Source of the DNA: Plicaturopsis crispa FD-325 SS-3
Lineage: Eukaryota > Basidiomycota > Agaricomycetes > Amylocorticiales > Amylocorticiaceae
Length of the DNA: 64,000 bases
Direction: 5' to 3'
Assembly: GCA_000827205.1 (NCBI GenBank)
Contig: KN832572.1
Span: 420,224 to 484,223, forward strand
Below, one piece after another: positions 18,562-64,000 of this stretch (positions are counted from its first letter, which is position 1; each line of letters starts with the position of its first letter). The notes beneath the pieces were generated by a model. That model did no database searches and was not told where the DNA came from. It saw only the letters and a list, made by a program, of their open reading frames with translations. Position numbers and translations under genes: made by a program.

Positions 18562-19971
18562 CACACAGGACGGCGACAGACCAGAATTATGAGGGCAGCC
18601 AGTGTAATATACAGAATGTCTGGTGGTGGTCGAAGTGAAGGCGAAAGTTTGGGTGCTTTGAACTTAGCTTTGACCAGCAAATAGGCCAAAACTTTTCCTT
18701 CTTCCCGCCACCTCCTTCCAAACGCTCTTTATCTTCGCTTGTCTCTTTTTTCGTGTGCATGGAACCTTTTGTCGAGGCGGTCCGCTGGTAGAGAAATGTA
18801 AAACGTAGAAAGGGTCTCCGGTGTTATCCTGCGATGCAAAAAGGGGCTCATGCGCTCAGTGGCCCTCGGTATCCTACGTAGGCGCGATGCCAAGTTTTTC
18901 AACCCTCAATGGCATAGCTCAGCAGCTGGAGCGTCTTGGTGGAATAGACCTACTGCGGCCTGACAAAGATGGAGCAACGAAGGTGGTAGTGCCAGGTGCG
19001 ATCTAGTTGTTTCTCTTCTGCGCTGCTCAGGCTCAAGCTCCTCTGCCAGAAGTCTACAACCGTATCGCCCGTTCCTGATAAACCTAGATTCTTAGATCAT
19101 GCCAGCGTACTCATACTTAGACGCTTTTTTCCGAGGTGTGTATGGTCTCAAGCAGCTCGCAAGGGGTCCAAAAACCACGAGTTCTGCTACGCGTCGTCCT
19201 GTGCGTGCCCGGACTTGTATTTCCTCTTATCATTCCTTCTGACAAGATCTGATTATTGTCAATCGCAACATACGCAACCCAAGCAGAATTATGCACTCCA
19301 CTGGGCAAACTCGCTTGGGCCAGCATGCGTGAAGATTCATCGGCGCCTCCTATCGTTCTCTTGGCTATCTAGTACAACCGACCGCTCTGAGTGATTGATT
19401 TCAGATCATCCGTGGAACGTAACCGCGCCAACTTGTGTCTCCATACTCCTGCCGGACCACGACCAACAAGGATCTTGGACGATGTGCTATAGCCATAATT
19501 TCACGAAAAACGTCGCCCCTCGCCGGCACCAAACGATAGTCCAACCGGCATCGCTCATTGCTACCTCACATACTCGATGCGTCATTTGATCATCTATTTA
19601 CGCTCGATACCGTTTTCTGTGAGTGATGCGAGCGTGTCCCGGTACATCGGTGTGTCAAAACAAGCTTCGCGAGAGTCCGCGTAATGCGTTAGACCAATCA
19701 AAGAGGACAAAACACAGTTCATTGACGACGGAAACTACTTGTTACTTGCTAATATATAACATCATTTTAAGTGCGACATTGCAAGTCCAAGGTTTCTCTT
19801 CGTCTGATAGGGTGATGCTTCGACGGAATCTCGTAGGCGTTGTTTGGTTCTCGGAGGCTGCAGCCAAACATTCAACGTCTACAATAAACGATCGTGGTTC
19901 TCGCGCTGCTCAACGGTCAACCTACTGCTGATCCATGATTTACACCGTTGTTCCCTGACTGCGACAATTTA
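18562..19971. other. 1.4 kb between SET3-type gene and zinc-cluster factor 2
   Basis: A bidirectional promoter region for two divergent genes. Apart from one weak small gene candidate at 18887-19078 (listed separately), I see nothing that reads as protein and no structural RNA. Confidence 0.45.
18887..19078 (+). CDS. Possible small or truncated gene, unknown function
   Basis: An ATG opens MPSFSTLNGIAQQLERLGGI and continues DLLRPDKDGATK. The frame can be spliced through a 48-nt intron (18983-19030, gt...ag) to AQAPLPEVYNRIARS and a stop. The composition is protein-like, with an amphipathic helix and a Pro-rich end, and it sits in an otherwise empty 1.4-kb gap. I do not recognise the protein. 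It could be the first exons of a decayed gene. The 48-nt intron is at the short end for this window. A chance open frame is the main alternative. Confidence 0.25.
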
Positions 19972-31042: not shown

Positions 31043-32035
31043 TCAATCGTCGCCGCTAAAATCAAGGACAACAACGTCCTGGGTGTCGACTTGGCGCGGC
31101 CGCACGGGGACCTCGAAGTATATAGGCAGTTTACCCGGGCGCTTGAATAAGCACGCCGTGCCCTCGAGCAGCACGAACTTCTCCTTCCCAGGTAAAATAT
31201 CCTTCTGTGCGATGCCATGCGCACGCTCCGCCGAGCACAGTCGAGAGGTTGGACACGGCATCCAAGGGGCCCTCCGATTGGGCACTGCCCAAAGCTCGTA
31301 GTCCTCTCCGAAGGGCGAGTTTACGGCTTCGCCAGTCTTCGAGTGCACCCAGTCGAGACAGTACTGGCGCTTCGTCTCGAGGCCTCTACCCCAGAGACGG
31401 AAGGAGTAGTCACTGTCAGGAATCTGACGGATGTGGATGTCCCCTTCGCCTGGCTTCGGCTTGCGCTGCAGAGAGACCCAAGTACTGGTAAGAACGAATA
31501 TCGGTTAGAAAGGGACGAAAGCACATACACCCACCGCCGCCGGGGGACCGTCCAGAAGCTCCGTCGTTGATTTCAAGATCGCAGCGCGCCTGCGTAGCTT
31601 CCCCGCGGCGTCGTAATTCCAGTAGAGGTCTTCGAGTTTGCTCTCCGACCATGCAGCAAAGTCCTTCGCCTCCACGTCGCTGGCCTTGACGGTAGCGAGT
31701 ACCTGGATGTCCCAGTCACGCATTTCTCCGGCTCGTGGTTGAAGATGTGGGTTCAATGCCTGGCAGTACTCGAGTAGACATCCCCGAAAGTCTTTCGGGA
31801 ACGTATCACCGGAGTCCGGTGTGTCTGCAGAGAGCGCGTCTTTGAGAGATGGAGAGTTAGTAGCTGTTGTTCTTGAGCCCAATGCAGCTTCCGTTGCAGC
31901 GCCACTCCCAGACGGCGGGGACGGCTTGCGATCGTAGGGTTTGGCTGGCAGTCGAGCCTTGGTGAAGGCGTCAGACACGATATGTGGATACTTTATGGAG
32001 AGACGTACGATATTCTTCGTTTTGCTTTTTGCCAT
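31043..32035 (-). CDS. Family A protein A1 (unrecognised, multicopy)
   Basis: Three exons give about 290 residues. Exon 1 (ATG at 32035) encodes only MAKSKTKNI. After a short intron, exon 2 begins ARLPAKPYDRKPSPPSGSG, a basic proline/serine tail, then a disordered linker and a compact block (FPKDFRGCLLEYCQALNPHL, MRDWDIQVLATVKASDVEAK, FAAWSESKLEDLYW). The second intron precedes RKPKPGEGDIHIRQIPDSDY. The strongly conserved C-terminal block follows: LWGRGLETKRQYCLDWVHSK, DYELWAVPNRRAPWMPCPTS, FVLLEGTACLFKRPGKLPIY and a final DFSGDD. There is no signal peptide or membrane segment, so it is probably cytosolic or nuclear. I do not recognise a known domain. It is arranged head-to-head with A2, 258 bp between start codons. 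Confidence 0.75.
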
Positions 32036-34270: not shown

Positions 34271-34871
34271 AGCAAACTCGAGAACCTCTACAGAGACCTG
34301 TTGCCCGAGGAGAAGCCACGCAGGCGCGAAGAGATCTTGAGATCGATGAAGCAACTGCTAGATGGACCCCCGGAAGCGGTAGGCGTACGTGTTCTCGTTT
34401 TTCTCTGGCACAGGGATCCATGTTTATAATTGCGGTTTTCTACAGCGCAAACCAAGGCCAGGCGAAGGGGACATCCACATCCGCAAAATTCCTGACAGTG
34501 AATACTCCTTCCGGCTTTGGGGCCGGGGCCTCGATGCGACGCACAAGTATTGTCTCGACTGGGTGCACTCGCAGACCGGCGAACCCGTCAACTCGCCCTT
34601 CGGAGAGGACTACGAGCTATGGGCTGTGCCCAATCGGAGGACGCCCTGGATCCCGTGTCCGACCTCTCGACTGTGCTCGGCGGAGCGTGCGTTTGGTGTG
34701 GCGCAGAAGGACATCTTGCCTGGCCAAGAGAAGTTTATACTACTTGAGGGCACGGCATGCCTGTTCAAACGCCCGGGTAAACAGCCGATTTACTTCGAGG
34801 TGCCCGTGCGGCCACGTCAGGACGACACGAACCAGGATGTGCTCGTCCTTGATTTCACCGGCAAGGATTAG
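33874..34871 (+). CDS. Family A protein A2' (unrecognised, multicopy), complete
   Basis: A complete family A gene: exon 1 MAKSKTRKS, exon 2 from ARLLSKPYNRTPSPPSGSGS through LRSMKQLLDGPPEAVG, exon 3 RKPRPGEGDIHIRKIPDSEY to DFTGKD and a stop at 34871. The C-terminal block carries LWGRGLDATHKYCLDWVHSQ, DYELWAVPNRRTPWIPCPTS, AFGVAQKDILPGQEKF and LLEGTACLFKRPGKQPIYFE. No known domain is recognised. The 3' flank (AATCCTTTGAGTGCTGAGCA and onward) recurs downstream of A4, showing that flanking DNA was copied with the gene. Confidence 0.75.
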
Positions 34872-35099
34872 TTCATTTCTGTCGGACCAGTGTCATTGTC
34901 AATGAGAATGTTATATTCAGGCTAATCCTTTGAGTGCTGAGCACTTATCCTCTGAGATCGTGTCAAGCTTGCCTGTCTACTATAGACAAATCGTCACAGG
35001 TCTAAAGCAGACGTGGGAATGAATTCGGAACCTGTCCTTTGAGTACAGCTGATGTTCGTGCTCTGTCCAACGCCCATTGAACTCCAGTATATTTCGAAT

Positions 35100-37714: not shown

Positions 37715-40676
37715 ATGTTCAACCTCTCTCAACGGACCGCAAAGGCGGTGCGCTCGCTCGCTGCGGGCATGGCCACCGCAGCACCGCGCATCGGTGACAC
37801 CAAGGTCGCCATGTCCAATCTCGAAAAGAATGCGTTCATCAACTACCAACGCATCGAGGACAACCTCGCTGTCGTCCGCGGGAGGTATGTTTCTTTCCGA
37901 CGGACGCTGTTTGACGATAGTTTTTGACGTTAGTGTAGACTGCAACGACCGCTGACGTTGTCGGAGAAGATTTTGTACGGTCATCTCGACGATCCGCATG
38001 GGCAGGATATCGAGCGTGGCACGAGCTACCTCAAGCTCCGGCCAGACGTGCGTGCATTTCTTGGCTACCGTCTCGCGCTGTGCTAATAGTTCCATCCAGC
38101 GAGTCGCTTGCCAGGACGCCACCGCTCAGGTATGTCGCCAGTGGCTACGTCACAATTTTTTTCTGATCTTCGGTTCAGATGGCGCTCCTGCAATTCATGT
38201 CTGCGGGCATGGACACCGCTGCAGTCCCCACTACGGTGCACTGCGATCATCTTATTGAGGCGCAGGTCGGCGGTGTGAAGGATTTGGCACGGGCTATCGA
38301 CATCAACAAGGAAGTGTACGACTTTTTGGCTACGGCCACGGCGAAAGTGCGTTTCGTCTGTCCTTTGTGGGTTCGCGCTTGTCACTGATAGTTGTCTGCT
38401 AGTACGGCCTCGGATTCTGGAAACCCGGTTCTGGTATCATCCATCAAATCATCCTCGAAAACTACGCCTTCCCCGGTGGACTTATGATTGGCACGGACTC
38501 GCACACACCCAACGCGGGTGGTCTCGGCATGATTGCGTGCGGTGTTGGTGGTGCGGACGCGGTCGACGTCATGGCAGGCATTCCTTGGGAGCTGAAGTGC
38601 CCCAAGGTTATTGGTGTCAACCTCACGGGCAAAATCGGCGGCTGGACCACTCCCAAAGGTGACCTTCCTCCTCGCTTCGCTGAGCGTCCGTAGCTAACAC
38701 GTGCACAGACGTCATCTTGAAGGTCGCGGGCATCCTTACGGTCAAGGGCGGCACTGGCGCTATCGTCGAGTACAAGGGTCCTGGTGTCGAGTCTCTTTCG
38801 TGCACGGGCATGGCTACTATTTGCAACATGGGTGCTGAAATCGGTGCGACGACGTCGATGTTCCCCTTCAATCACCGCATGGCCGACTACCTCAACGCCA
38901 CTAAACGCCGGGATATCGCTCAATACGCACAGCAATTCGCACACAACCTTAAGGCCGACCCCGATGCTGAGTACGACGAGCACGTCGAGATTGTACGTCT
39001 CATCTTTCCGTATCTTTCGTGCAAGTCCTCATGGATTCGCAGAACCTCTCCGAGCTCGAGCCCCACATCAACGGACCTTTCACCCCCGATCTTGCCACTC
39101 CCATCTCCAAGTTCGCCGCCGCAGTCAAGGAGAACAACTGGCCCGAGGAACTCAAGGTTGCGCTCATCGGCTCGTGCACGAACTCGTCATACGAGGACAT
39201 GTCGCGCTCCGCGTCCATCGCGAAGGAGGCCGCGGCGCACGGAATCGAGCTCAAGAGCAAGTTCACGATCACCCCCGGCTCCGAGCAGGTCCGCGCGACC
39301 ATTGAGCGTGACGGTCAGATTGGCGCCTTCGAAGACGTCGGTGGACTTGTCCTCGCTAACGCGTGTGGCCCGTGTATCGGTCAGTGGGACAGGCAGGATG
39401 TTAAGAAGGGCGAGAAGAACTCTAGTGCGTGGTCGATTTTTACTCATGTCCACGAGCGCGTTCTGATCTTAGGTTGGTACCACAGTCATCACCTCGTACA
39501 ACCGTAACTTCACCGGCCGTAACGACGCTAACCCCGCCACACACGCCTTCGTCGCGTCGCCCGACATCGTCACCGCATTCGCGTTCGCCGGTAGCCTTTC
39601 CTTCAACCCCCTCACCGACTCCCTCATCGGCTCCGACGGCAAACCATTCAAGTTCTCCGACCCTACTGGCAACGAGCTCCCTCCGCGCGGCTACGACCCC
39701 GGCGAGGACACTTTCCAGGCTCCCCCTGCAGACCGTGCTAACGTCAACGTCGCCATTGACCCCAAGAGCGACCGTCTCCAGTTCTTGCAGCCCTTCCAGC
39801 CCTGGGACGGCAAGACCCCGACTGACCTCCCCGTTCTGATCAAGGTCACGGGCAAGTGCAGTAAGTGCATCCTTCTAATACTGCTTAGCATTAGTCACTG
39901 AAGGAGAGTTCTGTAGCCACTGACCACATCTCCGCCGGTGGCCCCTGGCTCAAGTTCCGTGGCCACCTCCAAAACATCTCTCGTACGTCCCTTCTCCCAT
40001 ATCTCGCCTTGGCTTTTTTTTAACCGCTCGGGCTCGCAGAGAACTGCCTGATCGGCGCCATCAACGCCGAGAACGGTGAGGCGAACAAGGTAAAGAACCA
40101 GCTCACGGGCGAGTACGGCGGCGTCCCCCAGGTCGGCGCGTACTACCGCGACAAGGGCATCAAGTGGGTAGTGATCGGAGACGCGAACTACGGTGAGGGC
40201 TCGTCGCGCGAGCACGCTGCGCTCGAGCCGCGCTACCTCGGCGGCCTCGCGATCATCGCGCGCTCGTTCGCGCGTATCCACGAGACGAACCTCAAGAAGC
40301 AGGGCATGCTCGCGCTCACGTTCGCGGACGCGGCGGACTATGACAAGATCCAGCCCAGTGACAAGGTTACGATCGAGGGATTGGAGAGCTTCGCGCCCGG
40401 GAAGAACTTGACGCTTGTTGCTAAGCACGAGGACGGCTCGAAGGACGTGCGTGTCTTTGATTGTTTTTGTTAAGTGCGTGAATACTGACTTGGTGGACGC
40501 TGCAGGAAATCTCGCTCGCGCACTCGTTCAACGAGGGTCAGATCGAGTGGTTCAAGGCCGGCTCTGCACTCAACCTGGTACGTCCTCCGTCCCTTGACCG
40601 TCGCATCCGCCTGAATGTCGACTGACCTTTGATGTCGTTACAGATGGCGGCTAAGGCCAAGGCCAAGGGCAACTAG
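37715..40676 (+). CDS. ACO1: Mitochondrial aconitate hydratase (aconitase)
   Basis: This tricarboxylic-acid-cycle enzyme interconverts citrate and isocitrate in the mitochondrial matrix using a 4Fe-4S cluster. The start [20 protein letters not shown] is a typical basic, serine-containing import presequence. The catalytic core shows [29 protein letters not shown]-type substrate-loop sequence ([17 protein letters not shown]), and the three cluster cysteines in [14 protein letters not shown] and [15 protein letters not shown]. The swivel domain has [13 protein letters not shown] and the conserved [20 protein letters not shown]. The protein ends AAKAKAKGN at 40676. The ten or more short exons all join in frame where checked. 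This is a single-copy housekeeping gene in the window, lying between the two family A stretches. Confidence 0.97.
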
Positions 40677-41344: not shown

Positions 41345-42081
41345 CTACATGTAGTACTGGTAATGATGGTCGGGGTCTCCAAGACCGTCAAGGAACCAGT
41401 AGGGATAGCCCAGCACCTTGATCATCATCTCCAACTGCGCAGGCAACGGTCGTGTATAGAAGCGGCGCTTCGAGTAGTTTGAACTCAGTGCCCATGCGTC
41501 GCAGTCGTCGTACTCCACTCCGTCGACCGGGTCGGTCACATCCTTGGGTACAGCGAGCGCAAAAATCAGGGGATCGTACCCAGAGAGTTCCGCCATCACG
41601 ATGTAGGGGTCGAAGTGGTGGGAGTCGTAGGACTGGAGGTGCCGCCCCGGTCTGACCTTGTCAACCCAAGATTCGACAAGCGCCTTGTCGATCCGCCACC
41701 CGTATAGCCAGTGGCGCTTGACGCGCGGCTTTGGGGGGATGGGAGGGTAGATCACCCACTTGCCATTGCGGTCGATAATGGGTTTGTCCGTCTCAAGGGT
41801 TGGGCGAATCGTATCCGTGGGTGACGAGCTCTTAGGCTTCGGCGTAGAGATCTGTCGTGAACCGTCAGAGGAGATGCAAGGCTCGCCCCAATGACAGACG
41901 TACGTTCAAGTGCTCGAAATCTTGTGGCAAGGTAGCGGTAGACATATCCTCCGTGGGTGACGAGCTCTTAGGCTTCGGCGTGGAGATCTATCGTGAACCG
42001 TCAGAGGAGATGCAAGGCTTGCCCCAATGACAGACGCACGTTCAAGTGCTCAAAATCTTGTGGCAAGGTAGCGGTAGACAT
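41345..42081 (-). CDS. Family B protein B1 with duplicated first exon
   Basis: Family B is an unrecognised small-protein family of about 180-200 residues. In B1 the main exon encodes ISTPKPKSSSPTDTIRPTLE, a linker, then the core: WVIYPPIPPKPRVKRHWLYG, DPYIVMAELSGYDPLIFALA, DVTDPVDGVEYDDCDAWALS, SNYSKRRFYTRPLPAQLE and WFLDGLGDPDHHYQYYM. A short first exon (MSTATLPQDFEHLN) is present twice, with ATGs at 41945 and 42081, because of a 136-bp tandem duplication. Reading from 42081 through the duplicate stays open into the second copy, so either start is possible. No signal peptide or membrane segment is visible. The function is unknown. Confidence 0.7.
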
Positions 42082-42086
42082 ATCCG
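41815..42086. repeat. 136-bp tandem duplication covering exon 1 and exon 2 start of B1
   Basis: Two adjacent units (about 41815-41950 and 41951-42086) differ at only a few positions. Each contains the start of exon 2, the intron and the complete first exon of B1. Confidence 0.9.
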
Positions 42087-42199
42087 TCTTCGAGATCACT
42101 GACAACTATGGGTTAGTCATAGTTCATAAACGGACTATACGCAACTTACATGGTTACGGAGAAACAATATACTGGAGAGTCTTTAGGCGGATGTCGTGA

Positions 42200-42413
42200 A
42201 GTTCAATGGGCGTTGGACAGAGCACGAACATCAGCTGTACTTAAAGGACAGGTTCCGAATTCTCATCCGAAATTCCCACGTCTGCTGAGTCGTCTTGCTC
42301 TTCGCCATTTCCAGTGTCCGAAGAAAGTCATAACGGTCGTGCCAGTGGGTGCGCAGTGGTTTGCGAGTCGCGCTGTACAAATTGAAAGAACAAGAGTAGT
42401 TTGGACCGATATT
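42200..42413 (-). pseudogene. Family A relic, internally deleted
   Basis: On the minus strand 42413-42300 matches the 5' flank of A2, including its first codons (MAKSKT). It then joins directly to sequence matching the 3' flank found at 35007-35085, so almost the whole coding region is gone. It lies between B1 and A3. Confidence 0.8.
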
Positions 42414-42582: not shown

Positions 42583-43596
42583 ATGCCGAAGGGAAGTAGC
42601 ACGAAAAAAACTGTACGTCTTCTTGTAAAGCATCCAGCCTGAGCTGTGCTCACTAACACGTCGACTTGTAGGCTCGACCGGCTAAACCGTACGATCGCAA
42701 GCCGCCGTCGCCGTCTGGGAGTGGCATGATTGCAACGGCAGCTGAAGCTGAACGTTCGGGCTCGGAGATACAACCTGCCAGCTCTCAGTCTCCCAAAGAT
42801 GAACCCGCTTCAAGCGCGTTGCCAGACTCCGCTGATACGTTTCCGAAGAACCTTCGTGAATGTTGCCTCGAACTCTGCGAGTCTTTGAACCCGACGATTC
42901 AACCACGAGCCGGAGAAATGCGCGACTGGGACATTGAGGTGCTGTCTTCTGGCAAAGTCAGCATGGCCGACGCGAAGAATTTCGCTGCATGGTCCGACAG
43001 CAAGCTCGATAACGTCTTCAGGCACCTCACGCCCGAGCAGAAGCAACTTAAGCGCACCGAGTATCTGAAGGAAGCCAAGCAACGGATGGATGGGCCGCCG
43101 GCATCGGTAGGCGTACGTGATTTCGACGCTCTCTGACACCAGTATCCAGGCTTATACTCGCGGTTCTCTGCAGCGCAAACCTAAGCCGGGCGATGGAGAC
43201 ATCCACATTCGCAAAATACCCAACAGCGAGTACGCCTTCCGTCTCTGGGGCAGGGGCCTTGAGACGAAGCGTCAGTACTGTCTCGACTGGGTACACTCGA
43301 AGACCGGCGAACCTGTCAACTCGCCCTTCGGAGAGGACTATGAGCTGTGGGCCGTGCCCAATCGGAGGACCCCGTGGATTCCGTGTCCGACCTCGCGACT
43401 ATGCTCGGTCGAGCGTGCGTTTGGTGTGGCGCAGAAGGATATCCTGCCCGGCCACGAGAAGTTTACGCTACTTGAGGGAACGGCGTGCCTGTTCAAGCGC
43501 CCGGGTCAAATGCCTATATACTTCGAGGTGCCCGTGCGGCCGCGCCCAGTCGACAACTCGGACGTGCTCGTCTTCGATTTCAGTGGCGACGATTGA
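42583..43596 (+). CDS. Family A protein A3 (unrecognised, multicopy)
   Basis: Exons 42583-42612, 42672-43112 and 43174-43596 give 297 residues. Exon 1 is MPKGSSTKKT. Exon 2 starts ARPAKPYDRKPPSPSGSG and contains FPKNLRECCLELCESLNPTI, MRDWDIEVLSSGKVSMADAK and FAAWSDSKLDNVF. Exon 3 starts RKPKPGDGDIHIRKIPNSEY and ends DFSGDD. Exon 3 is nearly identical to that of A2' at many third-codon positions, whereas exon 2 is clearly diverged. It is convergent with A4, 359 bases apart. The function is unknown; the conserved Trp, Cys and Gly pattern in exon 3 suggests a compact folded domain after a flexible basic tail. Confidence 0.75.
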
Positions 43597-43955: not shown

Positions 43956-44972
43956 CTAATCCTCGCCAGTAAAATCGAGGACGAGAATGTCCGGGTCCAC
44001 ATTGACCGGGCGCGGGCGCACGGGAACCTCAAAGTATATTGACTGCTTACCCGGGCGTTTAAACAAGCATGCCGTGCCTTCGACCAGCACAAATTTCTCC
44101 TGGCCCGGTGGGATATCCTTCAATGCCATGCCAAACGCCTGCTCCGCCGTGGCCAAGCGCCCGCTCGCGCAGGGGACCATCGGTGTCCGCCGATTTGGCA
44201 CAGACCAGAGCTCGTACTGACTCCCGAAGGGCGAGTTGACGGCTTCGCCGGTCTCCGAATGCACCCAGTCGAGACAGTACTGGCGCCTCGCCTCGAGGCC
44301 CCTGCCCCATAGGCGGAAGGAGTACTTGCTGTCCGGGATCTTGCGGATGTGGATGTCTCCTTCGCCCGGCTTCGGTTTGCGCTGCAGAAACCCATGAGCA
44401 TAAATATTGATATCAGTGTTGGCAATGAATGAAGGATGACGACGTACGTACACCTATCGAATCCGGCGGTCCATCCAACTGCTCCTTGGTCTTTCGCAAA
44501 ATCTCTGCGCGCCAGCGTTTGTCGTCCCCGGGCGGGAAGTCTTCGATGAGGCTCTCGAGCTGGCTGTCCGACCATGCGGCGAAATCGTTCGCATCGGCCT
44601 CGCTGACTTTGCCACTCGCAAGTACCGTGATGTCCCAGTCGCGCAGTTCCCCGGCTCGTGGACGAATTGTCGGGTTCAAGAGCTCGCAGCTTTCGAGGTA
44701 ACATCCCCGAAGGTCTTTCGGGAACGTGTCAGCAGAGGCCGACGCGCTTGAAGAGGACGCATCCTTCGGAGACGGAGAGCTAGCAGGTGGTGTTTTCGAG
44801 TGCGGCGAGTCAGCTACCGTTGCAGCGCCACTCCCAGACGGCGGCGACAGCTTGCGTTCGTAAGGTTTGGCCGGTCGAGTCTAGAAGGCAACGGATTAGC
44901 GAGCACACTGGGTATGTAGAGTGTACAATGGATACCAGTACTTACAGTCGGTTTTGTGCCACTCTTTGCCAT
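43956..44972 (-). CDS. Family A protein A4 (unrecognised, multicopy)
   Basis: Starts at 44972 with MAKSGTKPT. An intron leads to TRPAKPYERKLSPPSGSGAA, then a serine-rich linker, FPKDLRGCYLESCELLNPTI, LRDWDITVLASGKVSEADAN and FAAWSDSQLESLIEDFPPGD. After the second intron come RKPKPGEGDIHIRKIPDSKY, LWGRGLEARRQYCLDWVHSE, QYELWSVPNRRTPMVPCASG, GTACLFKRPGKQSIYFEVPV and DFTGED. This is the most diverged copy in exon 3 (for example RLATAEQAFGMALKDI). All splice sites and the frame are intact, so it should be expressed if its promoter works. Confidence 0.75.
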
Positions 44973-50759: not shown

Positions 50760-52819
50760 CTATCCATTATCTTCAAGCATTTGCTGTAAACGCAGCATTA
50801 AATCGAGTGCCCTTCCCCATTTCTCCGCGCGTGGACGCCATATGTGGCCCGGTAGCGCAACTCGAAGCTCCTTCTTCCCCTTCTTCCCCGTCCGGAGTAT
50901 CTCGAACGGCATGTACTCGCCCCCCTCCCACTCATTCTCTAAAAGACCAAACCCTGTAGGTACTGTGCCGTTAGCGTGTACGGTATGAAAAGCTGTCCAG
51001 AATATGTCACGAAATTCGTCGGTGGGAAAAGGATTCGAGCTACGCGCCACGTCTACTGCTTCATGACGGATGTGATGCTCCTGGTCTGCTGCTACTCTCT
51101 CCGCCAAGTCGTCGTCATCAATCTCTGCAGCTTCCGAGGCATCGTCATGGTCATCGTCCAAATCCGACTCCTCCGGGTCATGGCCAGCACCTGTCTCCCC
51201 ATCTGCTCGTCGCCGAGCACGGCCGCTCACCCCATAATACTGACTGATGACATCGGGATGAACGTCCTCGCAGTCATCTTTATACAAGCCATGCTCAGTC
51301 TGGCCCAGGAGGCGAAGGTCCTTTATTTCAGGTCAGTGTTAGATCCTCTATGATCGGCTACTGCTCACGTTTGGACTTTGGTCGTGCGTGTCAGGCCCTG
51401 ATATTGGGTGCACATTCCATTCATCCTGAAAGGTACGGCAGTCATTGTTAATGTCCTGCAGGAATAGCTGATGCAAGAGCCATAGGTGATGCGGATCCTT
51501 GTAGTCGAGTCGATGAGCACGTTCCAAACGTGTGAAGAACGCACGCCACGGCCGTCCGAAGTGTCGACCTACTTCCACCCAAGTACGTTCAATTCTCGTA
51601 TTATGAGTAGATCTATACAGCATGTTAGAACTAGTCAGACACCTGCGAGCAACTTCAGCACTTACGACCCCCACATAAATGAAGCTCGGTTTGGGCCGCG
51701 GTGTAAGATCATGTACACAGATGAATCTACATTCTCCCCCCCTCGGTCACCTCTCATGCGCGATGGAAGGCCGTGCTGCTGCGTCGCCCGTACAAAGACC
51801 TCGAGGACAGTGGATGCCAGGTTATTATTGCTGGCATGTAGAGCGGTAATCTGCAAAATACAATGGTGAACCGTGAGCACTTGTAAAATATGAGAAAAGG
51901 GACAGCTAACTGTTCGACAATATCCATCCACGATGCCGTGAATAACTATGCCCCAACGGATTAACTTATGATGCCCGTCCAGGTGCCATAGGGCATTAGG
52001 TCTTGATATCGTGTACTTGCGACGGCGGATTGAGCTACGTTCACGAAGAACTCGACCGAGGCCGTCAACTCGCTCTACGGACTGTGCAAGCCTGATCTTG
52101 GGAATACGAACACCAAAGCGCCGCAAAAACCCAATTAAGTATCGGATTCCTGTCGCCGGGTTGTTTTGCTTGTAAGCACGGACAACAAGATCCAAGTCGT
52201 CGTCGGTGATCTGAGAGAAGTGTCGGGTTATACCATAGGCTTTTGCGTATTGTCGGACTGTATGTCGATGGGTCTTAAGCACGGACGCTAGTCTTGTCAC
52301 GGATATGTTGCGATGCAGAGACAGTGCCTCTTGAAGGTACGATTGGCTGATCACCTTCCGTGGACGGCCTGGACGGCCTGTGTGGATGACGGAAACCGGA
52401 TTGACGTGCAGAATGTTTGTGCGTTCACTGAGTAATTGAATGTCAAACTCGTAAGTGCTGAGACCTAGAGTAGCTAACATCTGGAACCATACACACTTTC
52501 CGTCAGCACCATCGGCTGCCATTCGCAGATGCAGTACCAAAGTTCCAAGGGCGCGAGCAGCGGTATGAATCCAGCCAAGTGGAAGGTGCTCATCATCCCG
52601 ACCTTTTTCCAGAGCTTCAATAAGTGGGAGGGCGTCTGAGGTGACCATATCGACATGGTACCGTAGGCGAGGGGGGTCAGCTTCTTGAGAAAGCACTTGG
52701 TGCGCTCTCGAGTAAATGTCAGAGAGACGTTGACGGGCTGCATGGACATTCGCACTCCAGGCTGCCTCATCATCGCGAGCAGGGGGCAGAAATGGAAAGC
52801 TAGGCGGGAGGTTTTCCAT
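50760..52819 (-). mobile_element. Integrase-core (rve-type) gene of mobile-element origin
   Basis: A gene of about 600 residues starts at 52819 (MENLPPSFPFLPPARDDEAA). An alpha-helical amino part is followed by a helix-turn-helix-like DNA-binding section (TRLASVLKTHRHTVRQYAKA). Next is a retroviral-integrase-like catalytic core (ALWHLDGHHKLIRWGIVIHG, MRGDRGGEN, NTRIERTWVEVGRHF) and an acidic C-terminal region. The DDE-type acidic positions of the core are visible. Exons can be read through with ordinary introns, so it looks largely whole. Multi-copy genes of this type are known in mushroom genomes; the exact element family is uncertain. I could not find terminal repeats, so element ends and age are unknown. 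It may also be a host-captured copy. Confidence 0.7.
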
Positions 52820-53020
52820 CGCGAAGAGCAACGTGTTCAAAGCCGTAAGCCGCACAGGAGATGGGGACACAAAAGGCGCACTCAGCGTCGACTACAGTGC
52901 GCAGGCGGCATTGCAGTTCCAACATTGTGGCTGAACTTTATCCATCTCAGCGGCGCGCTGTGCAACACAAACCGCCTCGTACTGCGAACGCTATCAAACT
53001 GTTGCACACAACAGACAAAT

Positions 53021-54383: not shown

Positions 54384-56240
54384 CTAGAGCGCGTTTAGTT
54401 CACAAGACAAAATGTAATTTAGGAACATGTTTGTTAGTGAGCATGAAGATCCGGACCAGTCAGTAGGCATACGCCTGCACGGCGATGGATGACGCTCCGT
54501 TCCGTACAGCTCCAGTCGCCTCAGCCGCTCTTTGAGTTGCGCGGTATTTGCTATATGTCGCCCGTCAGTCGCACCCTTCGTAGTTTAAAGCGGAAGGAGA
54601 AATGTATACCGAAATCGAGGTTCTCGCGTATGCGCACGATGAGCGCGCCCGGAACGTCCTCCTGCGCTTCTGGGTTCTCATTGATGGGCTTCCACCGCTC
54701 CGTGCCCGGTATACGGCCCTAGCCATCGCACTATCGTATGCAAACGATGACCACCTTAGGAGATTGCGGAAGGGTTGACTCACCAGTATCGTCATGCGCG
54801 TCCGCGAGGAGCGGCGGACGACGAGCAGGAGCGAGAAGATGAGGCTCACAATGATTCCGATCTCTAGGTCCAAAACGACGGAGAGGACGAATGTGAGCGT
54901 CATCAAGGAGAGGTCGGTCCACGCATGCATCCTACGCAGCTAGTCATCAGGGGGTGTACGGGGAAAGTGCACGTATGCCACACGTACTTGCAGTAGAAAA
55001 TGACATCGTGCGGCACTTCCGCGAGAAGGGAGAACACGACCAAGCAGATACTGTGGACAACAGACCTCAGCAAATGGGCAATCTAGGCGAGTAAACGAGA
55101 CGTACATCGACGCAAGCACGGCTTTCGGCAGGAAATACATCCACGGTAGAAGGAAGAACGTTGCCAGCAGCACGAACGCCGCGCAGACCAGGGAAGCCAT
55201 CTGAGTGCGCCCGCCAACATCGCCGTTGATTCTTGACCTCGTTATGGAGCCATACGCAGGTAGAGTGCCGGGGACGAAAGACGCCACAAGGTTTCCTGCA
55301 CCGAGCGCGACGAGCTCTCTGTTCGGGCTGATAGAGCATCCGTAGCGCGCAGCGTTCTGTTTCGCTGCTACGATACTGTCTAGGAAGCCGATGATGGCAA
55401 TCAGTCTGTCCATCTGCGGTTAGCATAGCATCGGTAATATAGGATAGGTCACTTGCATGGCAGTGGGGGTGGTCTTCCGCACGTAACGAAGGTTGAAATG
55501 ACGGAGGGGGAATCGTACGATGGACGACCCCAGGACAATCGGCACCGAGCCCAAAATCTCGACGCCATCGTTATCCCACCTAAACTGTTTAGACAGAACT
55601 GCAAGAACTTCAGCGATACAGACGTCAGACGGAAGGGCCTATCTACGTACCCGTGGAAACAACAACGACGAGGAGAACTTCCGGCAATCTGTAGATGAAC
55701 CAGTACTTCCTGAAAAAGCCCTTGAACGTCCTGACGAACACTAGCACGAAGAGTGCGCCAAAGCTGATAGTCGCGGTCGGAATATGCATGTTCGTGAGCA
55801 CATTTTCGACGAGGAAAACAAACTCCTCCATCGTGCCCTGCGGGTTCAGCTTGTGCGACAGCGCCGTGAGGCCGAACATTGGGATAAGTTGCTGGCTTTA
55901 CCATGACTGTAAACATGCCAATTCAAGGAGAAGAAGGCGGGCACATACATCATGATGACCACCGCGACGGCAGTGACGAAGCCACGGAGAAGTGCGCGAC
56001 TCAGTACGACGTCGATGAATCCCAGTCTGAAAAATCCGAGCAGGAACGAAATGAGGCCAGCCTGGAGTGTTATAACCGTCGCCACGGCTAATCCTACTTC
56101 GTCTGGGTTGATGGGATGTGAGTGCGGATCGCCATGGAGAACCTCGGAGACGGCTTGTCCGACTTGGGACGGCGGCATACGTGGTCGCGCGCATAGCTGT
56201 TGCTCGTCGGGGTTGCTTATTGAATGACCATCAAGCTGGG
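54384..56240 (-). pseudogene. SulP/SLC26-type sulfate permease, decayed (no STAS domain)
   Basis: The transmembrane core is clear: VATVITLQAGLISFLLGFFR, DVVLSRALLRGFVTAVAVVI, FFRKYWFIYRLPEVLLVVVV, IIGFLDSIVAAKQNAARYGC, GTLPAYGSITRSRINGDVGG and TDLSLMTLTFVLSVVLDLEI. The segment before the core is garbled: where the family has a GTSRQLNVAPEAALSLL-like motif this gene reads GATQLDGHSISNPDEQQ, and no start is convincing. After RIRENLDF and NTAQLKERLRRLELYG the frame runs into unrelated residues and a stop at 54384. The cytoplasmic STAS domain, needed for trafficking and regulation in the family, is therefore missing. Core splice sites are still good, so the decay seems recent. An assembly or exon-reading error cannot be excluded. 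Confidence 0.7.
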
Positions 56241-57569: not shown

Positions 57570-58171
57570 CTACAGGTAGTACTGGTAGTGCAATTTGGGA
57601 TCCCCGAGACCGTCAAGGAACCAGTACGGCTGACCCAGAACCCTGATCATCTTTTCCAGCTGCTTAGGCGACGGTCGTGTGTAGAAGCGACGCTTCGAGT
57701 AGTTCGATCCCAGCGCCCACGCCCGACAGCTGCTGTAGTTAACTCCCTCCACAGGTTCCGAGACATCTTCGGGGACAGCGCGCACGGGGATGAGGTTGCG
57801 GTACCCGCAGTAGTCGTACATCACGAGGTACGGCTCCCAGGTCGAGCCAAAGCGGTCGGGTTTTGGGCCTTTGATAGTGGTGACCCAAGCCTCTACGTGG
57901 GCCTGCTCGATCCGCCAGCCGTAGAACCAGTAGCGCCTGAGCTCGGGTTCTCGGGGGATGGGTGGGTAGTTCACCCAGTTGCCAGTGTGATCGACAAGGT
58001 CTCTCTGGGGCACAGGAGCTGCAGCCGGCCGTATAGTATCCGCAGATGACGTGCTCGTAGGAGTTGGCGTCGAGATCTATCATTGAGAACGGTTTAGAAG
58101 AGCAAGCGGACGAGCAATATACGACCTACGTTCAAGTGTTCGAACTCTCGTGGAAAAGTGGCTTCAGACAT
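57570..58171 (-). CDS. Family B protein B2 (unrecognised, multicopy)
   Basis: Two exons give about 185 residues. Exon 1, from the ATG at 58171, is MSEATFPREFEHLN. A short intron leads to ISTPTPTSTSSADTIRPAAA, a low-complexity linker. The family core then follows: WVNYPPIPREPELRRYWFYG, EPYLVMYDYCGYRNLIPVRA, DVSEPVEGVNYSSCRAWALG, SNYSKRRFYTRPSPKQLEKM and WFLDGLGDPKLHYQYYL. The core is rich in aromatic residues, with invariant YGW, GY, PVxGV, SxYS and GEPYWFLDGLG-like motifs, which suggests a compact domain. No signal peptide or membrane span is visible. The function is unknown. This is the cleanest member for defining the family. Confidence 0.75.
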
Positions 58172-58488
58172 TCTTCGTGGCTTTAGTCGTCCCGCAGAAT
58201 CCTTCGAGGACAGAGATCGCACCGAGTGGAAATCGAGGTGATGTTGCTGGCCGTGGTGGTGGCAGAAGGAAAGCCGTGTCCGTGTGACTTGTCACCGTGA
58301 CGGGTCGCGTCGGACGCGACACGCGTTCAACGTCGTTCGGTACGTTCAGCCGTGTAAGTTAGGCAGAACAGTCGCGCGCCTGCAGAACGCGCGGAAGAAG
58401 CAGCTTGTGCACCAGCAAGAGACGTCTTGTACAAATATATTCCAGTGGCGGTCAACAAAGGTCACAACGCGCATACCCGTCCAAAGAG
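58172..58488. other. Flanks between B2 and B3
   Basis: Upstream region of B2 and 3' flank of B3. It contains GGTGGTGGCAGAAGGAAAGC (about 58251-58270) followed by several ACGCGAC/GTCGCGT units, a pattern repeated upstream of other B genes. Confidence 0.6.
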
Positions 58489-59189
58489 TCAGATATAATA
58501 CGTCCCGTAATGGACCGCAGGATTCCCCAGTCCATCCAGAAACCAATACGGCTCGCCCAGGATATCCACCATCTTCCTCAGTTGCCCCGTCGTCGGCCGC
58601 GTAAAGTACCTCTGCGGCGAGTAACTCGAGCTAAGCGCCCACGTGTCGCACTCGTGGTAATTCACTCCCGGATCCACGGGGTGAGACACGTCCTCCGGCA
58701 CGGCGCACGCGGGGAAGAGCGCCTGGTACCCGGTGTAGCGCACCATGATGCCAAAAGGGTCGCTGGTGGCGTAGTTGTCCTTGGGGCGGCCGGGGAAGAG
58801 GCGGGCGGTCCAGGCATCGATGGTGGCTTGGTTAAGCCGCCACCCGTAAAGCCAGTAACGGTTGACGCGTGGTTCGATGGGGATGGGCGGGTATATCACC
58901 CATCCGGGAGGGTAGATGTAGTTGGGGCGCTTCTTTGGCGCGGACGGGCGGAGGTGGTGGGTGTTGGGGATGAGGTGCTGGGAGTCGGCGACGAGGTGCT
59001 AGCAGCCGGTGACGAGGTGCTAGGAGTCGACGAGGTGCTGGAAGTTGGCGTTGTGATCTGCTGCAGACAGTTAGAGCATAAAGGAGCAGGGTCAGCATAG
59101 GAACGTACGTTCAAGCCGTCGAGGTCTTGGGACAGGGTGGCCGCAGACGTGTCTGTTGTCGAGCTCGCTTCCATGGGTTGCGTCGACAC
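58489..59189 (-). CDS. Family B protein B3 (unrecognised, multicopy)
   Basis: Exon 1 (ATG at 59189) is longer than in the other copies: MSTQPMEASSTTDTSAATLS then QDLDGLN. Exon 2 opens with a tandemly repeated linker of STSSPTP units, encoded by about 24-bp repeats at 58965-59060. The core follows: WVIYPPIPIEPRVNRYWLYG, DPFGIMVRYTGYQALFPACA, DVSHPVDPGVNYHECDTWAL, SSSYSPQRYFTRPTTGQLRK and WFLDGLGNPAVHYGTYYI. It differs from other members in an extra residue in PVDPGV and the divergent YGTYYI end. The gene looks intact. Confidence 0.75.
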
Positions 59190-59302
59190 TCAGGGGATGT
59201 GCGTGTGTGAGGATGGATGTCCGAAGGCAAGATACGCGTACGAGAGGTGCAGGTATTCCAGGTGCGGTCAACAAAAGATTTCATGTCGAATGCAGGCTGA
59301 AA

Positions 59303-59880
59303 TTAGACGTAATATTGATAATGGTCCTTGTAATTCCCCAGCCCATCGAGGAACCAATACGGCTCGCCCAACACCTCCACCATCTTCTCCAACTGCTCCG
59401 GGCTCGGCCTCGTATAAAACCTCTTTCTCGAATAATTCGAGCTCAGCGCCCACGCCTCAAAGTCGTACGTGACCCCATCCACGGGATCCTCCACGTCCTC
59501 GGGCACGCCGCACACGGGCAGGAGAGCGTGGTACCCGGAGTACCGCGCCATGACGACGTACGGGTCGTACGTCGCGGGCCCGCTGAGGCGCGGACCGGGG
59601 TAGAAGAGGGAGACCCAGGCGTTGAGGCGTGGGCGGTCGATGTGCCAGCCGTAGAACCAGTAGCGTTTTGGTGCGGGGGATGGGAGGAGGGGGATGTGTG
59701 GGTATTTGACCCATTGGATGTGGGGATCCGCGTGGGGTGAGGAGGTGCTAGGAGTAGGGGTTGGGTTGGGGTGGGGTTGAGTATATACGAGATGCGCGTA
59801 AGCATGGATGGATGAGGATGCGCACGACGTACGTAGGCAATCGGGCCATCAGATCATCCTGCGAGAGTTGTATCGGACAT
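59303..59880 (-). CDS. Family B protein B4, first exon apparently spoiled
   Basis: The core is complete: WVKYPHIPLLPSPAPKRYWF, DPYVVMARYSGYHALLPVCG, DVEDPVDGVTYDFEAWALSS, NYSRKRFYTRPSPEQLEKMV and WFLDGLGNYKDHYQYYV, preceded by a NPTPTPSTSS linker. The place where exon 1 should be (ATG at 59880, MSDTTLAG) meets an in-frame TGA at its ninth codon. The exon-2 acceptor, AG in the other copies, reads GC in ACGCGCATCTCG. No other convincing start exists upstream. The gene is therefore either recently inactivated or uses an unrecognised start. The conserved Cys of the family (GVNYxxC) is absent here. Confidence 0.55.
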
Positions 59881-60207
59881 TCTTAGTCTTCCGTCGAGAG
59901 CGCGTACGACGAGCACAGGGCTTCAGGTTACGCGTATGGAGAGTGAACAATAATTGCAAGGGCGAGATGGTGGTGGCAAGAGGAAAGCGTGTAACGTGCA
60001 TGTGACGTGACCGCGAGCGCGTCGCTGACGCGACTTTGACGGTGACCAGCGCGTCATTAGCACCGTGCAACTCGTATGTACATCCGCCAATGTCGAGACA
60101 CGATAAGGCTCCGCTTGCTTTACTATGGATCTCGCTTGGCCAGTGAAGAAAGAACGAACTGCATATATATGTTCATCCGCAGGCAACACATGCACAGCAG
60201 CTCAAAG

Positions 60208-60792
60208 TCATGTATAATACTGATAGTGATGTCTAGGATTCCCGAGCCCATCGAGGAACCAATACGGCTCCCCCAGCACCCCCACAATCCTCTCCATCTG
60301 CCCCTTGTCCGGCCTCGTATAAAACCGCTTTTTCGAGTAATTAGAGCTCAGCGCCCACGCAGCGCACTCATAGCTCACCCCATCCACCGGGTCCTCCACG
60401 TCCTCCGGCACAGCGAGCACGGGGAACAAAGCGTCGTACCCGCTGTACTGCGACATCGCGACGTACGGGTTCCACGTCGAGCTGAACCGGTCCGTGGGCT
60501 TCGGGCCTCTGAGACGGACGACCCAGGCGTCGAGGAAGATTCTGTCGATGCGCCAGCCGTAGAGCCAGTAGCGTTTGCATTGCGGCGAGTCCGGGATGGG
60601 TGGGTAGTTCACCCAGGAGCCGGTGCAGTTGAGGATGACGGATTTCTGTGGTTGAGGAGGAGGAAGGGTTGGTGTCGAAGTCTGTCGGGAGCGGTTAGAA
60701 CTTAGAGGATGCAAGCCTGTGCTCGGTGAGAGACGTACGCTCGGGCGAGAGCCTGAATCCTGCGGCATTGTCAAGGCAATGACGTCGGACAT
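60208..60792 (-). CDS. Family B protein B5 (unrecognised, multicopy)
   Basis: Starts at 60792 (MSDVIALTMPQDSGSRPS). An intron with GTACGT donor probably leads to TSTPTLPPPQPQKSVILN, although reading through it also stays in frame. Core: WVNYPPIPDSPQCKRYWLYG, NPYVAMSQYSGYDALFPVLA, DVEDPVDGVSYECAAWALSS, NYSKKRFYTRPDKGQMERIV and WFLDGLGNPRHHYQYYT. It is close to B2 and B4 in the core and unlike them at the amino end. The gene looks intact. Confidence 0.72.
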   Translation of the reverse strand: MSDVIALTMPQDSGSRPSVRLSPSTGLHPLSSNRSRQTSTPTLPPPQPQKSVILNCTGSWVNYPPIPDSPQCKRYWLYGWRIDRIFLDAWVVRLRGPKPTDRFSSTWNPYVAMSQYSGYDALFPVLAVPEDVEDPVDGVSYECAAWALSSNYSKKRFYTRPDKGQMERIVGVLGEPYWFLDGLGNPRHHYQYYT

Positions 60793-61377
60793 GTCCTAGT
60801 ATATATCGAGGACAAGCAGCGTTTCGAGTGATTGAGTACTTTACTCAAACTTTCCTGGGTACTGAAGCTGGCACTGCAAAAGAATGGATTGAGATGGTGG
60901 TGGCAAGAGGAAAGGAGCAATCTGTTTCACGCGCGACAGCGCGCGACCAACACGCGACCAACACGCGACCAACACGCGTCACACGGCTTTCCTCCTGCCA
61001 CCCACCACCACCATCGCCCTGAGCGACTTCACCTCGATCTTCGCGCTCAATCACACGACATACATTCCGTGTCCTCAAACCGTTCTACCGCAAGACTATA
61101 GCTACGGAAGGATGTCTGATGCAACAATCTCGCGCCATTCCGGGTATGCGCGTTGTGACCTCCTGCCGGTGTTGACTGCGCTTGGAATATACTATCTGTT
61201 CAAGACGTCTTGTTGCTGCATGCAACTTGTAGAGTCCCGAAAGCGTGTAACGCGCACTGTGTGACGTGAACGCTCGCGTCAGACTGACACAGTGACAGTG
61301 CACGACCGTTTACAGAGGCTGGGCGCGCTTTCCTGGGCACCAGCTAGGCAAACAGAACAAAATGCTTCATCGTCACA
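60793..61377. other. Flanks between B5 and B6 with ACGCGACCAAC tandem repeats
   Basis: Contains GATGGTGGTGGCAAGAGGAA (about 60892-60911) followed at 60928-60980 by about four copies of an 11-base ACGCGACCAAC unit. The same box precedes other B genes without so long a repeat. No coding segment is supported. Confidence 0.65.
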
Positions 61378-61951
61378 TCACATATAATACTGATAATGAT
61401 GCTCAGGATCCCCGAGCCCATCGAGGAACCAACACGGCTCCCCCAGCACCTCCACCATCCTCCCCAACTGCTCCGGGCTCGGCCTCGTCCAAAACCGCCT
61501 CTCAGAGTAATTAGAGCTCACCGCCCACCCCGGGCATTCGGTGTAATTCACCCCGTCCACGGGCTCCGTGATGTCTTCTGGGACGGCGAGCACGGAGCGC
61601 AGGGCGGTGTACCCGGAGTACTGCGCCATGACGACGTACGGGTGGTAGGTGGAGGAGAAGCCGATGAGGGCGATGGGGCCTTTGACTTTGAGGACCCAGG
61701 CTTTGAGGCGTGGGGGGTCGATGCGCCAGCCGTAGAACCAGTGGCGTTCGACACGCGGCGCTGGTGGGATGGGTGGGTAGTTCACCCAGTCGCCGGTGTA
61801 GGAGATGGAGGGGTGGATGCGGGTTGCGGGTGTGGGAGCCGGGGGTGGAGAGGTCTGATGAGAGTGAGGGTTAGTGAGGAGAACATGCAGGTGATAGACT
61901 TACTACGGCGTTCGAGCGATTCGAGTCTTTTGGCAAGGCCGTGGCAGACAT
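61378..61951 (-). CDS. Family B protein B6 (unrecognised, multicopy)
   Basis: Exon 1 (ATG at 61951) encodes MSATALPKDSNRSNAV. After a 46-48-nt intron exon 2 begins TSPPPAPTPATRIHPSISYT, then the core: WVNYPPIPPAPRVERHWFYG, HPYVVMAQYSGYTALRSVLA, DITEPVDGVNYTECPGWAVS, SNYSERRFWTRPSPEQLGRM and CWFLDGLGDPEHHYQYYM. The GEPYWF motif reads GEPCWF here. Splice signals are intact. Confidence 0.75.
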
Positions 61952-62301
61952 GATGTCGATAATATACCTCGGGAGCGTTCGATGACAGGCTAATTGATTT
62001 AGTAGTCCAGAATTCGCTAGTACTAAGTGAACTGTTCCGTGTTGGAGGGTATGGTGCAGTGGCAGGAGGGAAGCAGGAGGAACGCGCCGCGCGGTCACGG
62101 TGCCGGGCGCGTACGCACGTGGCCTGCACGAGGCAGTCTCGTCGACATCCGCGAAATATTTCCCCTAATCCTTCATTACAACAGCTGCTGGCTTTCTTTA
62201 TCCTCCTGGTGTATCCCTGCTGCGTAACAAGCCTGCTCGGACGCGACCCGGACGCGACATCGTCTAGTACCACCCTCAGGATATCAGGAGAGTCGAACGC
62301 A

Positions 62302-62866
62302 ATGAACGTACGTCGCCCGACCCATCCTTCGCGCACATGTACTAGTACTCACAAGTACATACCGTTCTCGGCAGACCTCAACACCGCCCACCCCAACGCC
62401 TCTTCCCCCGGCCGCCCCAACCCCGCCCAAATCGGACCCCGCCCCCGCCCCCGCCGACTGGGTCCAATACCCACCCATCCCCGCCGACCCGCACGTGAAG
62501 CGCTTCTGGCTGTACGGCTGGCGCCTCGACCCCGCCCTCATCTCCGCCTGGGTCGACCACATCCTCCCCCGCACGCACAAGGACTCTTTCGCCTGTAGCG
62601 ACCCCTTTGGTCTGATGGCGCGCTACAGCGGGTACAGCGCCCTCCTCCCCGTGTTCGCCGTGCCCGAGGGTATAGAGGAGCCGGTGGACGGCGTGAATTA
62701 TTATACCTGCGATGCATGGGCGCTGAGCTCGAATTACTCGAGGAGGAGGTATTTCACGAGGCCGAGCCCGGAGCAGCTGAGGAAGATGGTCGATATTTTG
62801 GGCGAGCCGTATTGGTTCCTCGATGGGCTGGGGGATCCGGGGGATCATTATCAGTATTATATCTGA
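62302..62866 (+). CDS. Family B protein B7, inverted copy without a normal first exon
   Basis: This is the only plus-strand member of the right-hand array. The core is intact: WVQYPPIPADPHVKRFWLYG, DPFGLMARYSGYSALLPVFA, GIEEPVDGVNYYTCDAWALS, SNYSRRRYFTRPSPEQLRKM and WFLDGLGDPGDHYQYYI, preceded by TSTPPTPTPLPPAAPTPPKS. The intron donor GTACGT directly follows ATGAAC. The sequence where MS(T/A)(A)TLP is expected (near 62260) has lost its ATG, so the only in-frame start gives a two-residue first exon (MN). The gene may still be translated from that ATG. Confidence 0.6.
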
Positions 62867-63459: not shown

Positions 63460-64000
63460 TTCACTGCTGGCTCTTGAGGATTAACTGCTGGCTCTCGAGG
63501 TCCACACTGGTATTGTCGCTCCCTATGTCTGTACCTCGCTCCCTATGTCTATACCTCGCTCCCTATGTCTATACCGCACTGACTGACCATCTCCCTTGAA
63601 GATACACACCCAGCAGCGAAATGGCGGCTGAAAAATATGGTGCGAGCTTCCCCGGTCAGCTGTTTCTACTACGGCTGACCGACCGACCACCTTTTGCTCA
63701 GACTTGCACCTTTTGCTCAGACTTGCACCTTTTGCTCAGACTTGACCGCTCAATTCGCGGCGTCACGGTCTCTGTGTTTTCCTCTCGGGCTTGTGTTTTC
63801 CTCTCAGGCTGGTGTTTTCCTCTCAGGCTACTAACTATAGGGCGATTATGGACAGCGCGTAACGTGTCGAGGAGGACTTGTAACGCGTCGAGGGAGACAC
63901 CCGTAGCGCGTCGAGGGAGACTTGTAGCGCGTCGAGGAGGACTTGTAACGCGTCGAAGACGACTCGCGTAACGCGTCGAAGAGGACTCGCGTAGCGCGTC
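63460..64000. repeat. Run of five different minisatellites at the right edge
   Basis: Successive tandem arrays: a 23-bp unit (CTCTTGAGGATTCACTGCTGG) x2 at about 63448-63500; a 20-bp unit (TCGCTCCCTATGTCTATACC) x3 at 63518-63577; a 19-bp unit (CACCTTTTGCTCAGACTTG) x3 at about 63689-63745; a 19-bp unit (GTGTTTTCCTCTCAGGCTT) x3 at 63775-63831; and a 22-27-bp unit around AACGCGTCGAGGAGGACTTG x6 or more from 63856 past the edge. No coding sequence is supported within them. Confidence 0.85.

What the first reader, a model, noticed from the sequence alone, without database searches (positions are those of the whole stretch)
57570..62866. Unrecognised small-protein family B in a six-gene array plus one distant copy
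Seven members (41.3 kb, and 57.6-62.9 kb) share a core of about 135 residues with YPPIP, YGW, SGY, PVDGV, SSNYSxRRFYTRP and GEPYWFLDGLG motifs, all ending in an aromatic YQYY-like tail. Each has a tiny first exon and a proline/serine linker. I know no named domain of this pattern. The strong core against very variable amino ends suggests selection on one folded domain with changing tethers or targets.
Basis: partly seen in the sequence, partly recalled or inferred. Interest (0 to 1): 0.8.

Follow-up and report, generated by a model that had tools for sequence, protein, structure and literature searches.

The report
Genus-restricted fungal small-protein gene array
A wood-rotting fungus carries a small cluster of duplicated genes for an undescribed protein that, in the databases searched, was seen almost nowhere else; the protein is kept by selection, but what it does is unknown.

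Summary
The seven-member family is real. All seven copies share a 135-137-residue core with 48 invariant columns. Five of seven give intact two-exon genes of 165-182 residues; c2 has a shifted frame and c3 a broken 5' end. The relic of a further, deleted unit lies between c4 and c5. An NCBI record (P0005) is a near-copy of c7 on another contig.

The core is under purifying selection (codon-model omega 0.23; 0.16-0.19 over columns 61-141, 0.36 over 21-60; all below 1). Nothing reached threshold in Pfam, NCBIfam (4 of 7 scanned), PHROGs or PDB sequences. AlphaFold2 failed twice (pLDDT 50). No signal-peptide-like or membrane segment was seen. Exon 1 carries a recurring peptide, so the amino end is not simply variable. 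Kinship with a second small fungal family (...PRWY) is a weak lead. Function is inferred: an intracellular binding module.

The parts
57570..58171 (-). c1: exon 1 58171-58130, intron 53 b, exon 2 58076-57570; 182 aa, intact
58489..59174 (-). c2: exon 1 59174-59109, intron 51 b, exon 2 from 59057; the linker frame stops at residue 75, core in another frame
   Evidence: related P0004 reads continuously from linker to core
59303..59880 (-). c3: open core 59713-59303, but exon 1 stops after 8 codons and no acceptor site at the aligned place
60208..60792 (-). c4: exon 1 60792-60739, intron 57 b, exon 2 60681-60208; 175 aa, intact
60980..61218 (+). relic of a deleted copy: upstream region (60981-61125, matching upstream of c1) with a start of exon 1 (ATG at 61112), joined to a 3' flank (61141-61218, matching downstream of c2)
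61378..61951 (-). c5: exon 1 61951-61904, intron 49 b, exon 2 61854-61378; 174 aa, identical to PLICRDRAFT_46603 (P0001)
62302..62866 (+). c6: exon 1 62302-62307 (ATG AAC), intron 67 b, exon 2 62375-62866; 165 aa, identical to PLICRDRAFT_179891 (P0002)
41345..42081 (-). c7: exon 1 41945-41904, intron 52 b, exon 2 41851-41345; 182 aa; a second copy of exon 1 and intron at 42081-41988
58166..62285 (.). spaces between the array genes (seven stretches, 1,698 b in all) rich in ACGCG: 26 seen, shuffles mean 8.0, highest 16 of 200

Best explanation
This is a taxonomically restricted gene family of Plicaturopsis. Each intact gene makes a small soluble protein of 165-182 residues: a short N-terminal peptide from its own exon, a Pro/Ser/Thr-rich (probably disordered) linker, and one domain of about 135 residues, taken to be folded. 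The family grew by tandem duplication and dispersal, and loses members by frameshift and deletion.

Shown here: gene anatomy by sequence, duplication and loss, purifying selection on the core, no detectable relative elsewhere in what was searched.

Inferred: the domain acts inside the cell as a binding module. Its C-terminal half (PVDGV, SSNYS, RRFYTRP, GEPYWFLDGLG) would be the constrained structural or binding part, and columns 21-60 the part that differs between paralogues and gives each its own partner. I put the binding-module step itself at about 0.3.
For: Seven cores with 48 invariant columns. Intact spliced models in 5 of 7, two of them equal to NCBI gene models. Omega 0.23 overall; by region 0.215, 0.358, 0.189, 0.162, each rejecting omega = 1 (own script, one tree). 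M1a puts about 60% of sites at omega 0.08. Highest 15-residue hydropathy in the N-terminal part 0.63 or less, and no 19-residue stretch above 1.4, in the five intact copies. A relic unit, a broken c3, a shifted c2 and a duplicated c7 exon. Two unnamed-contig proteins pair with c1 (126 of 135) and c2 (116 of 136).
Against: No expression data were seen, and no structure could be modelled (pLDDT 50.3 and 50.2). Two of seven copies look damaged, so some of the array may be decaying. Simple counting (NG86) gives dN/dS above 1 in columns 21-60 for c3-c6 (windows 2.20 and 1.20) and 2.25 for c4 against c5 in columns 101-end, where pS is only 0.09. The codon model with codon usage gives 0.55 for columns 21-60 of c3-c6, below 1 (p 0.0017), so the two methods disagree on how relaxed this part is. 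About 39% of sites sit at omega 1 in M1a. The only clue to binding is the pattern of constraint.
Confidence: 0.5

Rival explanations
1. The family is a fast-diverged, tandemly amplified branch of a wider set of small agaricomycete proteins that end in ...L...PRWY, such as P. crispa PLICRDRAFT_39158, _33385 and _42645 and Termitomyces H2248_008704.
For: By eye, the same order of elements: G[WY]x[IL]D, a middle stretch, Y..C.A.A, then P.W[FY] near the end. hhalign of the two profiles scores 21.5, above all 150 + 150 column shuffles (highest 18.6 and 18.2). The score rose from 17.0 when the second family was deepened.
Against: hhalign probability is only 5%, E 0.0076, over 38 columns; with the seven-row alignment 4%, E 0.011. 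Family-B queries did not find it, and the baits found it only at E 0.64-1.5. Its GxRKGLGT motif is absent from family B.
Confidence: 0.3
2. Small secreted proteins (effector-like) in a fast-evolving array.
For: Small size, tandem array, restricted distribution, rich in aromatic residues.
Against: No hydrophobic leader in any of the five intact models (no dedicated predictor run). Only 1-2 cysteines per core. P. crispa is a wood-degrading fungus (PMC4503453 passages).
Confidence: 0.07
3. A decaying array of non-functional copies, or coding leftovers of a mobile element.
For: c2 and c3 damaged, one relic, a near-copy of c7 on another contig (P0005, 99 of 101 residues), and a 54-base repeat near c7.
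Against: Omega below 1 in every region. Five intact spliced genes. Only seven copies visible in 33.2 Mb. Some neighbours are ordinary genes (aconitase, sulphate permease), though one neighbouring frame has an integrase-core match.
Confidence: 0.08
4. A family born within Plicaturopsis or its near kin from formerly non-coding sequence, with its own new fold.
For: No relative found by sequence in the libraries searched.
Against: The core is long, strongly constrained and divergent among paralogues (dS near or above 1 for c1 and c7 against several copies), which suggests an age at which rapid divergence of an old gene is as likely. The protein search needs shared five-residue words.
Confidence: 0.15

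Closest known systems
Small ...PRWY family of P. crispa (PLICRDRAFT_33385, _39158, _42645) with a relative in Termitomyces (H2248_008704)
   Same: Small proteins without Pfam match (2 of the 3 P. crispa members scanned); by eye the same order of short motifs; profile match over 38 C-terminal columns above 300 shuffles
   Different: 108-112 residues against 165-182; no Pro/Ser/Thr linker; GxRKGLGT motif absent from family B; match far below accepted significance
Tandem gene duplicates of P. crispa (as in the long-read transcriptome study PMC4503453)
   Same: Neighbouring same-strand duplicates (c1-c5); the paper says polycistronic transcripts of this species are enriched in tandem duplicates (passages seen)
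   Different: Whether this array is transcribed, or co-transcribed, was not seen
Small secreted proteins of basidiomycetes (recalled kind)
   Same: Size and restricted distribution
   Different: No signal-peptide-like leader, few cysteines

Membership tests
Any curated domain family | match above the curated cut-off | tested here: not met
   Pfam: 6 of 7 members no hit at E 10; c5 has PF02267 at E 0.12, 12.2 bits against a cut-off of 25. NCBIfam: 4 of 7 members scanned, best E 0.23. PHROGs: 1 of 7 cores matched, E 0.072. PDB sequences with the profile: 0 at E 10
Small ...PRWY fungal family | significant profile match over the domain | tested here: inconclusive
   hhalign probability 5%, E 0.0076, 38 of 136 columns; probability 4%, E 0.011 with A3; above 300 shuffles, but the pair was chosen by a biased bait
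Small ...PRWY fungal family | GxRKGLGT motif | tested here: not met
   invariant in the 5 aligned members, absent by eye from the family-B alignment
Small secreted proteins | N-terminal signal peptide | tested here: not met
   hydropathy only, no dedicated predictor: highest 15-residue mean 0.63 or less in the N-terminal part of the five intact models
Mobile-element coding sequence | many dispersed copies | tested here: not met
   seven copies visible in the own genome, all on one contig, plus one database record on another contig; stretches that read N could hide more
Lineage-restricted tandem family | tandem copies, no relatives found outside a narrow taxon, mixed intact and broken members | tested here: met
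Lineage-restricted tandem family | absence from related genomes of the order | not testable with these tools
   only protein records could be searched for other fungi; no other Amylocorticiales genome was searched

The most novel reading that the evidence does not exclude
A new protein fold, young within Amylocorticiales. Its tandem copies sit behind ACGCG-rich upstream regions (a form of the MluI cell-cycle box, name recalled), so the family would be made at one stage of the cell cycle and its variable columns 21-60 would give each paralogue a separate partner, as in a recognition or self/non-self system.
Probability: 0.1. Interest if true: 0.65.

Novelty: new member of a known kind. Interest (0 to 1): 0.38.

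Why it matters
A constrained protein domain with no detectable relative outside one fungal genus is a clean case for asking where new domains come from. The related copies, broken copies, a deletion relic and near relatives of two members in other samples show birth and death of the family in one locus. Undescribed families of this kind are common in fungal genomes (general knowledge), so without expression or a structure the case is useful rather than startling.

Tried and rejected
Counting-based dN/dS suggested diversifying selection in columns 21-60 for c3-c6. A codon model that allows for the strong codon bias (GC3 0.77-0.82) removed this. The site test M2a against M1a gave 2 delta lnL 7.24 and 6.81 on two trees, but with omega at the search bound of 55.6, so I do not claim positive selection. 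These were my own scripts, not a published package.

AlphaFold2 on 7 and on 13 sequences gave pLDDT 50.3 and 50.2. The Foldseek matches to PDB (15 at E 10, best E 2.8) are meaningless at that confidence.

IMG/VR and bacterial/archaeal genomes gave no relative (0 of 32 and 0 of 78 pattern matches confirmed). The weak hit on contig C2 (14.4 bits) was looked at and taken as chance. The sigma-70 promoter scan does not apply to a fungus and told nothing.

Literature: P. crispa papers (27 hold the name, 15 listed), PLICRDRAFT (2 papers, listing only), orphan/tandem searches (0; 1; 1; 2). By their titles and the starts of abstracts none is about this family. Only passages of PMC4503453 were read.
Full report
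What is there. The window lies at 420224-484223 of a 515,234-base contig. The protein database places PLICRDRAFT_46603 (P0001) and PLICRDRAFT_179891 (P0002) of Plicaturopsis crispa FD-325 SS-3 on a contig of the same length. P0001 and P0002 are identical to the spliced products of copies c5 and c6. The organism is therefore P. crispa (Amylocorticiales). Seven open frames share a core of 135-137 residues with 48 columns invariant in 7 of 7 and 51-64% identity to the first row. The own-genome searches found these seven and no other significant match. Some stretches of the genome read N, so this is a lower bound. A database record, P0005 (PLICRDRAFT_179310, partial), is 99 of 101 identical to c7 and lies on another contig, so at least one more copy exists that these searches did not show.

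Gene structure. Six of seven copies have a short first exon and an intron of 49-67 bases with GT and AG ends at the same place (alignment). Spliced models are intact in 5 of 7 (c1 182, c4 175, c5 174, c6 165, c7 182 residues). In c2 the linker frame stops at residue 75, whereas the related protein P0004 reads through linker and core; by eye there are other AG sites in the c2 linker that would reach the core frame, and their use was not tested. In c3 the first exon stops after 8 codons and the aligned acceptor is missing. In c7 a 136-base unit with exon 1 and intron is duplicated (41814-42085, 96% matches). Between c4 and c5 lies a relic on the + strand: 60981-61125 matches the region upstream of c1 (67% over 145 bases) and 61141-61218 matches the region downstream of c2 (76% over 78 bases), with an ATG-TCT start between them. 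I read this as birth and death of a tandem family.

Is the core under selection? My codon-model script gave one omega of 0.231 for seven copies. By region (columns 1-20, 21-60, 61-100, 101-141) it is 0.215, 0.358, 0.189 and 0.162, and regions differ (2 delta lnL 29.3, p 2e-6); each region rejects omega = 1. For c3-c6 alone the values are 0.368, 0.546, 0.24 and 0.227, all below 1. Counting methods put columns 21-60 of c3-c6 above 1, and also c4 against c5 in columns 101-end, where few synonymous differences were seen; M2a fitted slightly better than M1a, with omega at the search bound. I read these as effects of codon bias and small counts, not as proof of diversifying selection. Neutral drift would rarely leave such frames open (4% of 5000 simulations from c4 at 0.2 substitutions per site).

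Where else is it? Two protein searches of about 5.8 billion sequences returned five proteins at E 0.01 (only the 7994 best-sharing candidates scored) and seven at E 10 (1411 candidates). They are P. crispa records or the window's own frame (P0001, P0002, P0005, P0006) and three proteins from unnamed assembled contigs (P0003, P0004, P0007). P0003 pairs with c1 (126 of 135) and P0004 with c2 (116 of 136), each with tree support 100/99, so the split of these copies is older than the split of those samples from this strain. Pfam, NCBIfam (4 of 7 members scanned), PHROGs and PDB sequences gave nothing above threshold. IMG/VR and prokaryote genomes gave no confirmed relative. The word-based search cannot exclude distant relatives.

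A possible relative. It belongs to a three-member P. crispa family with database relatives in Termitomyces and one JGI record. Profile comparison with family B gave 38 aligned columns, probability 5%, E 0.0076 (with the seven-row alignment 4%, E 0.011). The score of 21.5 exceeds 300 column shuffles, highest 18.6. Because the bait resembles family B, this selection favours a match. I rate the kinship at 0.3.

How it may work. The five intact models have no hydrophobic leader and no membrane stretch by hydropathy. P0001 and P0002 have mean hydropathy -0.42 and -0.43. The linker is rich in Pro, Ser and Thr, and is taken as disordered by inference. The strongest constraint lies in the C-terminal half. 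I infer an intracellular binding domain with a conserved half and a more variable stretch at columns 21-60. No tool result shows a partner, an activity or expression.

A regulatory hint. The spaces of the array hold 26 ACGCG sites in 1,698 bases; dinucleotide shuffles gave a mean of 8.0 and at most 16 in 200. Two of the seven stretches, the relic and the one downstream of c5, are not enriched on their own, and the region upstream of c7 has none in 408 bases. ACGCG resembles the MluI cell-cycle box (recalled). The spaces are themselves related by duplication and contain short repeats, so the sites are not independent.

Verdict. As a kind, restricted tandem families are common (general knowledge); the interest lies in origin and structure, which need data not held here.

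Noticed in passing
window 43111-43593 (+), 34383-34868 (+), 31046-31483 (-), 43959-44429 (-): A second unnamed small-protein family: four copies in the window, three at 71-85% identity to the query copy, and four weaker matches (27-33%) on two other contigs; no Pfam match for the one tested copy.
   Followed up: partly
L053 1501-1827 (+), L051 1492-1818 (-), L054 1495-1833 (-): Three-member P. crispa family of 108-112-residue proteins ending PRWY-like, with a GxRKGLGT motif; relatives in Termitomyces and one JGI record.
   Followed up: partly
window 35033-35086 (+) and 42197-42250: A 54-base repeat, 96% identical, one copy upstream of c7 and one near a copy of the second small-protein family.
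   Followed up: no
window 57573-62863 and 38684-39463: Third codon positions switch from C-rich in the first half to G-rich in the second half of the array cores (clearest in c2-c6, hardly in c7), and also in an aconitase exon and in L054 of another family, but not in the PHD/SET frame.
   Followed up: partly
window 63859-64000 and L015 1-579: Minisatellite with units of about 21-23 bases around GCGTCGAGGAGG next to the array; its run into L015 is judged by eye from the repetitive open frames.
   Followed up: no
window 17290-18663 (-), 38684-40470 (+), 51665-52891 (-), 54943-55419 (-): Neighbouring genes: PHD/SET protein, aconitase (40024-40470 part by eye), a frame with integrase-core (rva_4) match, sulphate permease.
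   Followed up: no
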